Positions 46,101 through 64,000 of a DNA stretch of 64,000 bases are shown here, piece by piece. This DNA is from Odiellus spinosus (taxonomy: Eukaryota > Arthropoda > Arachnida > Opiliones > Phalangiidae). Under the pieces are notes generated by a model. That model was not told the origin of the DNA. It ran no database searches and worked only from the letters and a program-made list of their open reading frames with translations. Where the stretch lies: assembly GCA_963920705.1 (NCBI GenBank), contig OY987226.1, positions 6,140,501 through 6,204,500 on the forward strand, read 5' to 3'. The position numbers were made by a program, and so were the translations under genes. How positions within the stretch are numbered: the stretch's first letter is position 1; each line of letters begins with the position of its first letter.

Positions 46101-49100
46101 CCATATAATAACGAATGAAATTGGCTCATCCAATGAGGAAACATCTTGTAATTTGTTTAAAAATTGTCCGAATTTCAAAATTTAAAAATAATTCTACCAA
46201 ATACATCAAATAAAACAACACGAGTTCAACAAAAGTTTACAAGTTTTGTCCATGTTTGTTGAAGAGCTAGTTAAAACAGGAAAACAATTGATGTCCTGTT
46301 TCATTATCCCTTTTTAAAAGTATTCTAGACCCTGATAACAAGTTATTTTAATCGATGCAGACTGTTAAAATTTGCTTAGAAGCCAAAGGTTTCGCGCCAA
46401 TTTACAGTTAATTATCAACGTCCCAAAATCGCGAACTATACTCGTTAAGCCTAAATCTGTTTCGAAGACATTTTACGACAGGAAACTTCTCGAGAAAACT
46501 GAGTTGCTGATGACAATGAAATGTCGTTTAAAATTAGGCTTAGCGCGTGAAGCAATTTATCTCCTAAAGCTAACGAAATGTCTAAGAAACATCTCTTTCG
46601 GTTCAAACGCCATTTCAAAGACAAACTCTCATTGGTATCAGCAATTGAATCCTTTTCAAATAAATCCGGAATAAATTAACCGGTCGAATTACCACGAAAT
46701 CTCTGGCTAGTTTTAATAATGCTTGAGGAATATTTTAAGTATAACACGATTATAAAAAACTTGTTTGCAGTATTAAGTATCCCTTTAAGGAAATCTATGG
46801 AATGTGTTAACAGTAAATTGTATAATATGGTGATATGTAGCCCAAAATTAAGTTTAGGGAATGTTTAAAACTATGTAAAGACGTTGAATGTTTAAGTAGT
46901 AGGTACGCCCGTGTCTTTAGTTTTGTACAGTGGAGTACTTGGTAATACTGACTTCCATTTTCAGAAATTATACGAGAGAACTTGGCAAGTTCCAGAAGCT
47001 AGCTTATTGCAATACTTTATAAACAAATTAAATCTTTATAGGCGTTATCGGAGCATAGCATTTTTTATAGCTATTGATGCAACATTAGAAGTATATAATA
47101 TTGTTAAATAGTAATTAAGCGTACATGTTTCAAACGTAACTTTCAAAAAAAGTGTTGCAGCTGCCCTGGGCATTCGTACTGAAATAATAATGAGAGAGGC
47201 AGGGTTTTTACTGCACCCATGCTAAGCTCCTCTTCACCACTGCACTTGACCCCGCACGTGGCCTCATTTTTAGCACGACTCTCCGTACCATATTCCCTAA
47301 ACTATTCTAATAACTTTCAATATTCAATAACCGGTTGCAAAAACATGTTTGTCAGGCACTGATACAAATAAAAATAGGTGGAGATTTTTACTTTCAAGTT
47401 TTGGTATAGATACCCTGAAAAGATTATCAATTCAAGCACACTATTGTCTACTTTTCTTTTTCCCGTTGTTGCGTTTAGCATGTGTGGTTTCCAGCACTTC
47501 CAGAGGGCGGGGAATATGCACGTCGACCTTTTCGAGAGCCTTTACTTCGTGGTGGTCACTTTCTCGACGGTGGGCTACGGTGATTACAAACCGGACTGTT
47601 GGCCTTCCCAATTGTTTATGGTGGTGATGATATGCGTGGCGTTGATCGTCTTGCCCACTCAGTTCGAACAGTTAGCCTACACGTGGATGGAGCGACAGAA
47701 GCTGGGCGGCACGTACAGCATGCACCGCGCTCAATCCGAGAAACACGTCGTCGTTTGCAACACCACTCTCAGGGCGGACACCATCATGGACTTCCTCAAC
47801 GAGTTTTACGCGCACCCACTTTTGCAAGTACGTCTCATTACCCTTCTATATTCTTTGCTACTATCAACGAGTGAAGTTTAGTGTCATTGAGAAATATTTC
47901 TTATCATTTAAAATTAGAAAAGTATTTCTGGCTTGAAAACAATACGGAACCTTATGTAGATTCTCCAGTTGATGTTACAATCTAGATTTAATATTTAGCC
48001 TACCTTCGCGAAGGAGTGGAAAGCAAAAGCTGCTTTATACCAAAAACTATTCAGGACTAATATTAGCCGGGTTATATGATTTAATCCGTATATTTAGAAG
48101 ATAAATAAACTGTATTGAAAGATATATTGAGATTAATTGAAATTTTTAAAAACTTTCCTTTGAAACCATTGACAGGATTTTTACGTGGTTCTACTTTCAC
48201 CTTGCGAACTGGACGCCACCATGAAGATGATTCTTCAAGTGCCCATTTGGGCTCAAAGGGTCATATACATTCAAGGCTCGGCTCTCAAGGATACGGATCT
48301 CACCAGAGCTAGGTTATAAACTATTATTTAATTGCTCCGAAATCTAATTTCATTTGACCCTTTTGAAAAATACTGGTAATTTTCTTTGCGTAGAATGAAT
48401 GCGGCAGAAGCTTGTTTTATATTAGCGGCTAGAAACTACAATGATCGAAGCGCTGCTGTAAGTAGTTAGACATCTGAAGCTTAATGTGATGTTTGAGTTA
48501 GCAAGTAAATAATATTTTGTATTCGCTTGACTAGGACGAACACACGATTCTGCGCTCGTGGGCAGTGCGCGACTTTGCGCCAAACGTGCCACAGTACGTC
48601 CAGATTTTCCGTCCTGAAAACAAAGTGCACGTTGCTTTCGCCGGTAAGACTTTGCTACAATTTGATCATAATGTTACATAAAATCCGTTTCCATCATAGA
48701 GCACGTGGTTTGCGAAGATGAGTTCAAATATGCCTTACTGGCCAACAATTGCTTGTGTCCGGGGACATCAACGTTGGTCACTCTACTATTACACACGTCG
48801 AGGGGTCAGGAAGGTCAAACTTCCGCCGAGGAATGGCATCGCCACTATGGCAAATGTTCCGGAAACGAAATCTACCATATTCGACTGATGGACAGTCGTT
48901 TCTTCGGAGAATACGAGGGCAAGAGTTTCACTTACGCCTCCTTCCATTCGCACAGAAAGTAAGAACCCAAAATTAGTCAGCCCAGGTTGGTTTCGCAATT
49001 TATACCTTAGTTTACGTGTTTAGGTACGGAGTGGCCTTAGTCGGTGTACAATCCGACGTCAGGGGTACCTGGCCCATCATGTTGAATCCCGGACCATCGT

Positions 49101-52100
49101 ACGTCATGAAAGGGTCCGACATTTGTTTCTACATGAACATTACAAAAGAGGAAAACAGCGCTTTTCTACCCGCTAACACTAACGGTGACCCTGACGAAAA
49201 GGTTTCCACTAAAGCTCCTGGTGGTGTCGGTGAATTGAGCCGTGAAACGAAAAAGCCGCAGGAATACGAACGGAAACGAAAACCATCTACTGGTAAGAGA
49301 TCCAATGACGTTAACGGTACATTTTTTTGTCCAACACGAGGTACTAACCATTTCAGCAGATAGTTTAGTTCACTTGGGAAACTCGCCCTTTAAATCTAAA
49401 ATCACTTTCGGCTTGCATAAGAAGAGACCGGGTTTCCATTTGGAAGTACCTAAACACGATGGTCAACTACCCAGTTCCGGCGACAGTGGCGCTAGCGACG
49501 ACCCTCCGCCACCAAGGGGAAGAAGACCGAGTATAGCTCCGGTTCCCGCTATGTTCGGACAGCAGGACAGTGTCGATTTGGTGGACGCCGACGACGATAG
49601 CCAAGAAGATCAACTGGAAGAGGAGGAAGAGAAGTATTTGGACATTCCTTGGATAACACCGGCTGAAACTTGCGAGTAGGTTTTGTAAACTCAAAAGTAT
49701 GATTTTCTAACATTAAAAACACCAATAAACAATTTATTCGAACAGAATCGTGAAAGGTTTTCCTCCAGTTGCACCTTACGTTGGAGTCAGTCCTACACTT
49801 TGTTACCTACTCAGAGATAAGAAACCTTTATGTTGTCTTCAATTGGCCCAAGTCTGCGAGCATTGTCCGTTCCGTAACGCCAAGGAGCACAACTGGCCCA
49901 ATCAGTGCATTATCTTGGCAGCAGATTACGCTAGCAACGGCATATACAACTTCATAGTTCCACTACGCGCGCACTTCCATAGTCCTCAAACATTAAGGCC
50001 CATCATACTTCTTCTCGAAAGAAGGTACAGGTAATTACTCTCTTCGCTTCGATTCTAAATGGTTGAAACACGTAATCATTGTAGGCCTCATCCGGCGTTC
50101 CTGGACGCGATATCATGGTTTCCTTTAGTCTACTGGATGCAGGGCTCCATTGATAAGTAAGAAGTTCAACTAAGGTATATAACAATACAGTATTATGTTA
50201 ACCAATCAAAACAACCAGCTTGGACGACTTACTACGAGCTGGAATCAACTTGGCGGACAGCGTTGTGGTGGTTAACAAAGAATCCACCAATTCCGCCGAA
50301 GAAGACTACTTGGCTGATTGCAATACGATAGTTGCTGTTCAAACAATGTTCAAGTATGCTTTGATAGACAATCTGTTATCGCCTATCTAAGCTTTAAAAA
50401 GCGTATACCTGCTTATCCTTGGAGAGCGCGTAACCTAATCTTTGTACCATTCTCGCTACAGACTATTTCCCAGCGTTCGCATCATCACGGAACTCAGTCA
50501 GTCCAGTAACATGAGATTCATGCAATTCCGAGCGTTTGACGCTTACGCCTTGCACCTATCGAAAATGGAGAAGCGCGAACGGGACCGTGGCTCTCATATT
50601 TCTTACATGTTTCGACTTCCTTTCGCTGCTGGGAGCGTTTTCAGTGCCAGTATGCTCGATACACTTTTGTACCAGGTATATGAATAATATAATATTACCT
50701 TAAACTTTTCACTGTAGGCCAGGGATTTTCGAATATTCAATATTTTTGGATAATAAATTTTCTTTTTATATCTTTTCAATATAAGCAATATATGAATCGT
50801 AACTGTATATTTTTTGCTATATTTTCAGGCCTTTGTGAAAGATTACATGATAACGTTCGTCAGGTTACTTCTCGGTATCGACCAAGCACCTGGTTCGGGA
50901 TTTCTGTCCTCCGTAAGATCTTTTTATAGCTTTATTGCTTTTCTATTGTGTGTTTGGGGAGGTTTCGTAACTCGGAGTTTTTCTTATAATGGAAGAAGCG
51001 AATGTTGCTAAAGGTAAACTTCATCCATATTGACTTTTTGAGGGTGGGCGTGACCCGACCTCGCCTTTTGGAGGGAAGGTAATAAAATTCTACAGGATGT
51101 AAAGCCAGTGGGGGAGCTAGAACTTATTTTTCAATTAAGGGCCACTCTAAAACCTTGTGGAAATTGGAAACCAAGATATTGATTCGAATATGGTCTAACG
51201 GAAATTACTTGACCCATCGAAGTTGATTTACGAGTCCCCAGGTGAATTAAAAGTAGGTTAAAGCTTACTTGGTCTACCCTTATGTAAAGCTAGAAAGGGG
51301 TACTAAAGTTACATCATCTCACTGAACGAGAGGTAATGGGGGCCCAGTTAGAGGTGAAAAAGCTTATGATACGTGCATTGAAATCATTTAACGACTTCCT
51401 AAACGTAAGAAGGGGCGATACAAATGCTTACAGTCGACGCCATGAGTGAAGTTACTCTTGCGTGTGCGATTGCCCTAATAGAATAGAGTTCTAAATTGGT
51501 AATTTAAGCGTTAAATTTCCAAGTTAATACAATTTTTTTGCTTTAAATGTGAGCAATTTGCTAAAAGGTCAAAATTTAACGTTTTAAATAATTTACAAGT
51601 CTGCTCTTTAATAGTAATTCGTGTCTGTCGTCATGTAGGAATTATTTTTGTCAGAAATAAGAATTTTGAAGGGTTTGAAAAATAAGTCCCGCATTTAAAA
51701 CAACAAATTTAAATAAATCATTTTGTGAATATCCGAAAATTACCACGAGAAACTATTATTAGGTCCTTGCTATCTTGTTTTCCAATATCATTTTCTTCCC
51801 TTATCGGTAAAAGTGCAGTTGGTCAAAAACCAACAACTACTCTGTGAAAAATGATGTTTCTCTTCTCAAGGCTTTTTTCTTCTGAATCATAAACATAAGT
51901 TGTGTACTTTCTATAGAGGTTTCTCCAGTCTATATCCATATTATTTTTTATCTGATATTCGGTAAAATATAAATCACCCCTTTTTACTTGGCCCTCCAAT
52001 CCTCGAAACAAATTGTATAGAGAATAGAATCTTGTTTCCAAAATTTATCATTTCGCGTTGCCTACAGAATAGCTGAGATATTAGTGACATATCTTTGTGT

Positions 52101-61565: not shown

Positions 61566-62745
61566 TGTGATATTTTCAAAGCGTGTGTTATTTTCAAAGG
61601 GCGTGTTATTTTCAAAGGGCGTGTTATTTTCAAAGGGCGTGTTATTTTCAAAGGGCGTGTTATTTTCAAAGGGCGTGTTATTTTCAAAGGGCGTGTTATT
61701 TTCAAAGGGCGTGTTATTTTCAAAGGGCGTGTTATTTTCAAAGGGCGTGTTATTTTCAAAGGGCGTGTTATTTTCAAAGGGCGTGTTATTTTCAAAGGGC
61801 GTGTTATTTTCAAAGGGCGTGTTATTTTCAAAGGGCGTGTTATTTTCAAAGGGCGTTTTATTTTCAAAGGGCGTTTTATTTTCAAAGGGCGTTTTATTTT
61901 CAAAGGGCGTTTTATTTTCAAAGGGCGTTTTATTTTCAAAGGGCGTTTTATTTTCAAAGGGCGTTTTATTTTCAAAGGGCGTTTTATTTTCAAAGGGCGT
62001 TTTATTTTCAAAGGGCGTTTTATTTTCAAAGGGCGTGTTATTTTCAAAGGGCGTGTTATTTTCAAAGGGCGTGTTATTTTCAAAGGGCGTGTTATTTTCA
62101 AAGGGCGTGTTATTTTCAAAGGGCGTGTTATTTTCAAAGGGCGTGTTATTTTCAAAGGGCGTGTTATTTTCAAAGGGCGTGTTATTTTCAAAGGGCGTGT
62201 TATTTTCAAAGGGCGTGTTATTTTCAAAGGGCGTGTTATTTTCAAAGGGCGTGTTATTTTCAAAGGGCGTGTTATTTTCAAAGGGCGTGTTATTTTCAAA
62301 GGGCGTGTTATTTTCAAAGGGCGTGTTATTTTCAAAGGGCGTGTTATTTTCAAAGGGCGTGTTATTTTCAAAGGGCGTGTTATTTTCAAAGGGCGTGTTA
62401 TTTTCAAAGGGCGTGTTATTTTCAAAGGGCGTTTTATTTTCAAAGGGCGTTTTATTTTCAAAGGGCGTTTTATTTTCAAAGGGCGTTTTATTTTCAAAGG
62501 GCGTTTTATTTTCAAAGGGCGTTTTATTTTCAAAGGGCGTTTTATTTTCAAAGGGCGTTTTATTTTCAAAGGGCGTTTTATTTTCAAAGGGCGTTTTATT
62601 TTCAAAGGGCGTTTTATTTTCAAAGGGCGTTTTATTTTCAAAGGGCGTTTTATTTTCAAAGGGCGTTTTATTTTCAAAGGGCGTTTTATTTTCAAAGGGC
62701 GTTTTATTTTCAAAGGGCGTTTTATTTTCAAAGGGCGTTTTATTA
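61566..62745. repeat. Satellite T4, 18-bp unit, about 65 copies
   Basis: Unit TTATTTTCAAAGGGCGTG or the variant with GCGTTT. Variants come in four blocks: G type to about 61850, T type to about 62030, G type to about 62428, T type to 62745. The period is exactly 18 throughout, so frames stay open on both strands for nearly 400 codons; these are not genes. Confidence 0.97.
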
Positions 62746-62769
62746 ATTATTAATTTTTATTTTTTTACA

Positions 62770-63615
62770 ATAATACAAGGGGTGTATTTATCGTTTATTT
62801 TTTTTTTACAGGGGGTGTATTTATCGTTTATTTTTTTTTACAGGGGGTGTATTTATCGTTTATTTTTTTTTACAGGGGGTGTATTTATCGTTTATTTTTT
62901 TTACAGGGGGTGTATTTATAGTATATTTTTTTTTTACAGGGGGTGTATTTATCGTTTATTTTTTTTTTACAGGGGGTGTATTTATCGTTTATTTTTTTTA
63001 CAGGGGGTGTATTTATCGTATATTTTTTTTTACAGGGGGTATATTTATCGTTTATTTTTTTACAGGGGGTGTATTTATCGTTTATTTTTTTTTACAGGGG
63101 ATGTATTTATCGTTTATTTTTTTTTACAGGGGGTGTATTTATCGTTTATTTTTTTTTACAGGGGGTGTATTTATCGTTTATTTTTTTTTTACAGGGGGTG
63201 TATTTATCGTTTATTTTTTTTTACAGGGGGTGTATTTATCGTTTATTTTTTTTACAGGGGGTGTATTTATCGTTTTTTTTTTTACAGGGGGTGTATTTAT
63301 CGTTTATTTTTTTTACAGGGGGTGTATTTATCGTTTATTTTTTTTACAGAGGGTGTATTTATCGTTTATTTTTTTTACAGGGGGTGTATTTATCGTTTAT
63401 TTTATTTTTACAGGGGGTGTATTTATCGTTTATTTTTTTTTACAGGGGGTGTATTTATCGTTTATTTTTTTTTTACAGGGGGTGTATTTATCGTTTATTT
63501 TATTTTTACAGGGGGTGTATTTATCGTTTATTTTTTTTTACAGGGGGTGTATTTATCGTTTATTTTTTACAGGGGGTGTATTTATCGTTTATTTTTTTAC
63601 AGGGGGTGTATTTAT
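62770..63615. repeat. Satellite T5, about 30-bp unit, about 27 copies
   Basis: Unit ACAGGGGGTGTATTTATCGT + TTA and a T run of six to nine. The T run makes the period vary from about 27 to 32. Each unit reads as a T tract followed by ACAG|G. Confidence 0.95.
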
Positions 63616-63616
63616 T

Positions 63617-63839
63617 ATTTTCTCAATCTCAATTTTCTCAATCTCAATTTTCTCAATCTCAATTTTCTCAATCTCAATTTTCTCAATCTCAATTTTCTCA
63701 ATCTCAATTTTCTCAATCTCAATTTTCTCAATCTCAATTTTCTCAATCTCAATTTTCTCAATCTCAATTTTCTCAATCTCAATTTTCTCAATCTCAATTT
63801 TCTCAATCTCAATTTTCTCAATCTCAATTTTCTCAATCT
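63617..63839. repeat. Satellite T6, 15-bp unit, about 14 copies, inside T5
   Basis: Unit TTTTCTCAATCTCAA, nearly perfect. It begins directly after a T5 unit (GTGTATTTATTATTTTCTC) and T5 resumes right after it. Confidence 0.95.
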
Positions 63840-64000
63840 TCTTTTTTTTACAGGGGGTGTATTTATTATTTATTTTTTTACAGGGGGTGTATTTATTATT
63901 TATTTATATTTTTTACAGGGGGTGTATTTATTATTTATTTATTTTTTTTAACAGGGGGTGTTCTTATTTATTTTTTTACAGGGGGTGTATTAATTTATTT
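63840..64000. repeat. Satellite T5, second segment, runs off the window
   Basis: Five more ACAGGGGGTGTATTTATTAT units. Here ATTATT replaces the ATCGTT common in the first segment; the last unit of the first segment already has ATTATT. Confidence 0.92.

What the first reader, a model, noticed from the sequence alone, without database searches (positions are those of the whole stretch)
50017..50100. Tandem splice donors would insert Tyr-Arg at the predicted sodium-binding site of SLO2
Seen: exon 17 ends GAAAGAAG followed by GTACAG and GTAATT, both in frame with exon 18, giving [15 protein letters not shown] or [17 protein letters not shown]. Known (from memory): in rat Slack a DxRxxH-like motif (DNKPDH, with Asp818) at this spot in RCK2 contributes to sodium sensing. 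The short form aligns gap-free with DNKPDHH but has Glu for Asp and lacks the His at its place; the long form adds two residues there. Inference: alternative splicing could tune sodium sensitivity of this channel, which already departs from the vertebrate motif.
Basis: partly seen in the sequence, partly recalled or inferred. Interest (0 to 1): 0.72.

Follow-up and report, generated by a model that had tools for sequence, protein, structure and literature searches.

The report
Tandem splice donors in insect SLO2
A potassium-channel gene of what looks like a beetle has two usable, in-frame splice points six bases apart next to a loop involved in sodium activation; the sequence suggests that the longer version is the usual one, and whether the short one is made or matters is untested.

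Summary
An SLO2 (KCNT-type) exon ends CTCGAAAGAAG|GTACAG|GTAATT; donors after 50024 (D1) and 50030 (D2) both join the acceptor at 50084 in frame, giving [15 protein letters not shown] or [17 protein letters not shown].

Against 67 other donors of this genome D2 (long form) scores at or above 60, D1 at or above 17; the probability ratio is about 30:1 for D2 (bootstrap about 9-140). So Tyr-Arg is more likely the default than an optional insert. Against that, the short form aligns gap-free with vertebrate Slack, 5.4-5.9 bits better. No transcript or relative could be examined.

The sodium reading is weakened: Cole et al. 2024 report that the proposed Na+-binding fold is not seen in chicken cryo-EM structures, that the loop is static, and that Asp-to-Glu at this position behaves like wild type. 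Other changes, in both forms, may matter more: Asn at human D884 and Ser at T922.

Verdict: a delta-6 tandem donor of a known kind, probably set by site affinity; regulated sodium sensing is possible but unsupported.

The parts
49746..50024 (+). RCK2 exon up to donor D1 (short form); extends to 50030 with donor D2 (long form)
   Evidence: gap-free phmmer match of the short form to chicken and human KCNT1 (chicken again)
50017..50019 (+). GAA, Glu at the position of human D839 / rat D818
   Evidence: human chain 8hir numbering counted on the alignment
50025..50030 (+). GTACAG: intron start for donor D1, or exonic hexamer that adds Tyr-Arg when D2 is used
   Evidence: D1 scores at or above 17 of 67 control donors
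50031..50036 (+). GTAATT: intron start for donor D2 (long form)
   Evidence: D2 scores at or above 60 of 67 control donors, U1 duplex -8.1 against -6.2 kcal/mol for D1; chosen by the homology-blind gene finder
50025..50084 (+). intron of 60 nt (D1) or 54 nt (D2, from 50031); acceptor TTGTAG ends at 50084
   Evidence: control intron lengths 51-109 nt
50085..50156 (+). next exon, [24 protein letters not shown] with the split Arg codon
50274..50276 (+). AAC, Asn at the position of human D884 (activation-switch residue), in both forms
   Evidence: sequence; alignment with human 8hir; role of D884 from PMC11309980
50496..50498 (+). AGT, Ser at the position of human T922 (pocket that receives residue 884)
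   Evidence: PMC11309980
47480..53215 (+). pore-to-RCK2 part of the SLO2 gene modelled here (12 introns joined); further exons were not modelled

Best explanation
A delta-6 in-frame tandem 5' splice site in an insect SLO2 gene. U1 can bind at two overlapping donors six bases apart. The downstream one (CAG|GTAATT) is the better match to this genome's donors and probably makes most of the mRNA, adding Tyr-Arg in the betaL-alphaO loop of RCK2. The upstream one (AAG|GTACAG) corresponds to the vertebrate protein length and probably makes a minor short form. The ratio is most simply set by relative site affinity (splicing noise), not by regulation. The two channels differ by two residues close to the Glu at human position 839, where an acidic residue is needed for Na+ activation; an effect on gating is possible, size unknown. 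Shown: both sites, both frames, relative site scores, identity of the gene. Inferred: use of either site, isoform ratio, lack of regulation, any effect on gating.
For: Exact sequence and frames. Gene identity: 799 aa of joined exons match chicken KCNT1 at 1009.6 bits against 132.8 for the best BK channel; Pfam Slo-like_RCK, BK_channel_a and Ion_trans_2 over cut-off. Donor scores: D2 9.45 and D1 5.26 bits, at or above 60 of 67 and 17 of 67 control donors; with the 55 genome donors alone 9.58 and 6.04 bits, 50 of 55 and 20 of 55. Raw probability ratio 4.9 bits, bootstrap 3.16-7.16, none of 5,000 resamples at or below zero. U1 pairing of D2 (-8.1 kcal/mol) is stronger than that of 10 of 12 SLO2 donors, of D1 (-6.2) than 7 of 12. 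The homology-blind gene finder with profiles from other genes finds all 10 other SLO2 introns that lie wholly in 47300-51000 and takes D2 by 1.75 nats. Five of 67 control donors read GTAATT, none GTACAG. Chern et al. 2006 (PMC1449888, abstract and passages seen; authors' names recalled): small exon-length variants are predicted by stochastic binding in proportion to site affinity (tested there for donor shifts of 1-4 nt). No unusual RNA structure at the junction (z -0.02).
Against: The short form fits vertebrate KCNT1 without a gap and scores 5.4-5.9 bits higher, so D1 looks ancestral and could still be the main donor. The 60-nt intron is nearer the common length: 11 of 63 control introns are 58-62 nt and 5 of 63 are 52-56 nt. 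The 55 genome donors were found with a gene finder that started from recalled consensus frequencies, which favours consensus-like sites such as D2; the control scores are leave-one-out while D1 and D2 are not. A first, faulty training run (discarded) scored D1 slightly above D2 (6.2 against 5.75 bits). With so wide a gap the short form may be negligible: about 3%, bootstrap 0.7-10%. No transcript and no relative was available.
Confidence: 0.5

Rival explanations
1. Only D2 is used: the boundary has shifted by six bases in this lineage and Tyr-Arg is a constant part of the channel; D1 is a leftover.
For: D2 is 4-5 bits stronger and is picked by the gene finder; barring D1 costs the gene-finder path nothing (130.3 with or without).
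Against: D1 is still as strong as about a quarter of the control donors (17 of 67 score no higher), pairs with U1 better than 7 of 12 SLO2 donors, and lies where the vertebrate protein length puts the boundary.
Confidence: 0.27
2. Only D1 is used: the ancestral short protein is the channel and D2 is a silent look-alike inside the intron.
For: Gap-free alignment with chicken and human KCNT1, 5.4-5.9 bits better than the long form; 60 nt is nearer the common intron length.
Against: A site as good as D2 is rare (42 of 12,166 GTs); D1 scores below background at +4, +5 and +6.
Confidence: 0.11
3. One reading: a regulated splice choice that tunes sodium sensitivity of the channel between cell types.
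For: The two residues sit in the betaL-alphaO loop near the position of D839, which is required for Na+ activation (PMC11309980; alignment). The same paper cites a K+ density between D839 and D884 in closed human channels. A human precedent for a tissue-biased 6-nt donor shift exists in PUM1 (PMC8055015, passages seen).
Against: No regulatory evidence; the proposed binding fold is not seen in chicken structures and the loop is static between states; D839E is like wild type (PMC11309980). Wide strength gap between the sites. In human genes in-frame tandem splice sites are under negative selection and delta-6 donors are rare: 142 of 140,975 coding introns with evidence of use (PMC2279118, passages seen).
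Confidence: 0.1

Closest known systems
KCNT1 / Slack / KNa1.1 (chicken 5u70, human 8hir) and its RCK2 Na+-activation region
   Same: Same family: 1009.6 bits over 799 aa; K885, D898, E920 and L921 (human numbering) are kept
   Different: E for D839, P for H844, N for D884, S for T922, and an optional or constant YR after residue 841
Delta-6 in-frame tandem 5' splice sites (tandem alternative splice sites)
   Same: Two donors six bases apart, both in frame, adding or removing two residues; described for human genes in PMC2279118 and PMC8055015 (passages seen)
   Different: Use of both sites has not been observed here; only sequence evidence
DXRXXH Na+-coordination motif of GIRK channels, proposed for rat Slack RCK2
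   Same: An acidic residue followed two later by Arg (E-R-R)
   Different: No His at +5 in either form (+4 in the short, +6 in the long); the fold itself was not seen in chicken Slack structures (PMC11309980)

Membership tests
SLO2 / KCNT channel | Closer to KCNT than to BK (Slo1) or Slo3 over pore and gating ring | tested here: met
   KCNT1 1009.6 bits, best BK 132.8; the Slo3 (KCNU1) gating ring scores 38 bits against 438 for KCNT1 with the RCK2 part
SLO2 / KCNT channel | Pore with GYG filter, two RCK domains | tested here: met
   TVGYGD in the joined protein; two Slo-like_RCK stretches, BK_channel_a and Ion_trans_2 over cut-off
SLO2 / KCNT channel | Activation by intracellular Na+ | not testable with these tools
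   needs electrophysiology; switch residues D884 and T922 are changed
Delta-6 tandem donor | Two GT donors six bases apart, in frame with one acceptor | tested here: met
Delta-6 tandem donor | Both sites within the strength range of other donors of the genome | tested here: met
   at or above 60 of 67 and 17 of 67 control donors
Delta-6 tandem donor | Both junctions seen in transcripts | not testable with these tools
   no RNA data held
DXRXXH Na+-coordination motif | Asp, Arg at +2 and His at +5 | tested here: not met
   E-R-R-P-H-P (short) and E-R-R-Y-R-P-H (long): acidic residue and Arg present, His not at +5

The most novel reading that the evidence does not exclude
An insect SLO2 channel with a rebuilt sodium switch (Asn at D884, Ser at T922) in which a six-base splice choice adds Tyr-Arg beside the acidic residue that may lock the switch through K885, so that neurons set Na+ sensitivity by choosing the donor.
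Probability: 0.07. Interest if true: 0.65.

Novelty: new member of a known kind. Interest (0 to 1): 0.3.

Why it matters
If both forms are made, nature has built a two-residue insertion beside the acidic residue that Cole et al. propose to pair with K885 in the Na+-activated state, which is a ready test of that switch model. Even without splicing, the natural Asn at D884 would be informative: Cole et al. report (citing Xu et al. 2023, not read) that D884N in rat Slack is non-functional up to 2 M Na+. A working insect channel with Asn there, and the smaller Ser at T922, would bear on whether residue size or charge matters.

Tried and rejected
Relatives: the protein (short form, 162 aa) was scanned against genome contigs and viral contigs in the hope of stray insect contigs. 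None of 30 and none of 13 pattern-matched stretches encodes a relative. The whole-genome tool states that this genome has no relatives there. So conservation of either donor is untested.

RNA structure at the junction: no signal (z -0.02).

First donor training discarded: 38 minus-strand loci had not been turned, only 17 loci trained the coding model, and the donor profile drifted away from a recognisable donor consensus. That run scored D1 6.2 and D2 5.75 bits, the opposite order. Repeated with turned loci (44 loci in training). There the finder reported 280 introns, of which I kept 55 with coding log-odds above 6 on both sides and dropped 225 before any count.

Structure prediction of the two forms was not attempted.

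Papers on the Na+ site that I wanted but which are not held: PMC3277328, PMC10089238, doi 10.1016/j.celrep.2023.112858. Searches whose listings (titles and abstract starts only) show no paper on insect SLO2 splicing at this junction. Most of these listings are capped, so this is no proof of absence.

Full report
1. What is there. The window lies in a 443-Mb genome of 286 contigs. Using the donor after 50024 (D1) gives [15 protein letters not shown]; using the donor after 50030 (D2) gives [18 protein letters not shown] search of the own genome with 49900-50300 found one place.

2. The gene. I joined the exon read from 47480 with the following ones over 12 introns. Over 799 aa (long form) the product matches chicken KCNT1 (5u70) at 1009.6 bits and human KCNT1 (8hir) at 997.8 bits, against 132.8 bits for the best BK channel. 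Pfam finds Slo-like_RCK twice, BK_channel_a and Ion_trans_2 over their cut-offs. Exon joins 1-5 and 7-12 fall within stretches aligned to chicken KCNT1; join 6 lies in the unaligned linker, and join 7 next to a gapped part. Exons upstream of 47480 and downstream of 53215 were not modelled.

3. Donor strengths in this genome's own terms. Three Pfam searches of the own genome gave 67 loci. A small gene finder (codon log-odds, introns 45-120 nt, started from recalled splice-site frequencies) reported 280 introns; I kept the 55 with strong coding on both sides. Adding 12 SLO2 donors set by homology gives 67 controls. D2 scores 9.45 bits, at or above 60 of 67; D1 scores 5.26 bits, at or above 17 of 67. 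With the 55 alone the figures are 9.58 bits and 50 of 55, and 6.04 bits and 20 of 55 (control scores are leave-one-out). Of 12,166 GTs in the loci, 42 reach D2 and 944 reach D1. Predicted U1 pairing is -8.1 kcal/mol for D2, stronger than 10 of 12 SLO2 donors, and -6.2 for D1, stronger than 7 of 12. The raw probability ratio is 4.9 bits in favour of D2 (4.25 with the 55 alone, 6.78 with the 12 SLO2 donors alone; bootstrap 3.16-7.16), about 30 to 1. No control intron of 67 has a GT six bases downstream, and none has an in-frame GT within 12 nt as good as D1. A faulty earlier run had given D1 6.2 and D2 5.75 bits and was discarded, because 38 loci were read on the wrong strand.

4. A blind check. 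With donor and acceptor profiles from the 55 introns only, and no homology, the finder was run on 47300-51000. It made 12 introns: the 10 others that lie wholly inside exactly as set by homology, junction 8 with D2, and one false intron at 50863-50930, near the donor of an intron (2,171 nt) that exceeds the limit of 400 nt. Barring D2 costs 1.75 nats, barring D1 costs nothing, barring both costs about 6.5 nats.

5. What speaks for the short form. Against the chicken gating ring (5a6e) the short form scores 443.3 bits and aligns without a gap, the long form 437.9 bits with a two-residue gap; against human 433.8 and 427.9. The 60-nt intron is nearer the common length: 11 of 63 control introns are 58-62 nt and 5 of 63 are 52-56 nt, with a minimum of 51. 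So D1 probably marks the old boundary and D2 a later, stronger one; this order of events is inference.

6. The sodium question. Cole et al. 2024 (PMC11309980, main text read in full) state that the motif lies in the betaL-alphaO loop, that the binding fold proposed in 2010 is not seen in chicken cryo-EM structures, that the loop does not move between states, that D839A gave no current at up to 40 mM Na+ but D839E is qualitatively like wild type, and that D839 may pair with K885 in the activated state. Glu here is therefore probably no loss. In favour of a role for the region, the same paper tells that mutation of D818 and, less so, H823 in rat lowered Na+ activation, that D757R in human KNa1.2 abolished it, and that others assign a K+ density to D839 and D884 in closed human channels. 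A 2013 review (PMC3850776, passages seen) gives a tenfold loss of sensitivity for D818N or H823A. Counting on the human alignment, this channel keeps K885, D898, E920 and L921 but has Asn at D884 and Ser at T922, in both splice forms. Cole et al. report that D884N in rat Slack was non-functional up to 2 M Na+ (citing Xu et al. 2023, which I could not read), that Glu or Phe at 884 clash with T922 in models, and that modelled Asn clashes with acidic pocket residues. The smaller Ser could make room for Asn, but that modelled Asn clash is not said to be with T922, so this is inference only. If this channel departs from vertebrate Slack in Na+ activation, I think these two residues better suspects than the Glu. 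Whether insect SLO2 is Na+-activated was not settled; PMC7503973 (passages seen) calls the fly channel sodium- and/or calcium-activated.

7. How it most likely works. Two U1 sites six bases apart compete. Chern et al. 2006 (PMC1449888, abstract and passages; authors' names recalled) argue that such small variants follow site affinity and are mostly noise; their donor test covers shifts of one to four nt. On that model D1 would make about 3% of the product (bootstrap 0.7-10%). Hiller et al. 2008 (PMC2279118, passages) count 142 delta-6 tandem donors with evidence of use in 140,975 human coding introns and find selection against in-frame tandem sites, only moderately so for donors in ordered regions. 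The tandem-site catalogue (PMC8055015, passages) finds minor sites weaker than major ones on average, upstream sites favoured when strengths are nearly equal, and a tissue-biased 6-nt donor shift in PUM1, so regulated cases exist. No regulatory evidence was found here, and the RNA around the junction is not unusually structured.

8. Limits. No transcripts and no relatives. The control donors come from a home-made finder seeded with recalled consensus frequencies, which may favour consensus-like sites; 36 loci contribute and some may be duplicates. The insect identity rests on TCAGG arrays at the start of contig C1 and TTAGG elsewhere on it (capped listing), which I recall as beetle-like; it was not tested further.

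9. Verdict. Observation confirmed; interpretation partly supported. The tandem donor is real as sequence and of a known kind. The long form is the better guess for the usual product, and sodium tuning by splicing remains a conjecture.

Noticed in passing
window 49354-49359: CAGCAG (NAGNAG) acceptor at another SLO2 intron, which would give KPSTADSLV or KPSTDSLV in the linker between the RCK domains: a second in-frame tandem site in the same gene.
   Followed up: partly
window 50274-50279 and 50496-50498: Asn at human D884 (K885 kept) and Ser at human T922 in the Na+-activation switch of SLO2, where the chicken and human KCNT1 chains in the PDB have Asp and Thr.
   Followed up: partly
window 61567-64000: Block of tandem repeats (18-base unit x 65 copies at 99%, 32-base unit x 27, 15-base unit x 15); it explains overlapping open frames of about 400-800 codons on both strands.
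   Followed up: partly
G000:C1:74-413: TCAGG arrays at the contig start, with TTAGG repeats scattered inside the contig: mixed telomere-type repeats, beetle-like from memory.
   Followed up: no
L007 and L008; L028 and L029: Kinase matches of nearly the same score on a large and a small contig (C2/C45) and on two contigs (C152/C215): possible uncollapsed haplotypes or recent duplicates in the assembly.
   Followed up: no
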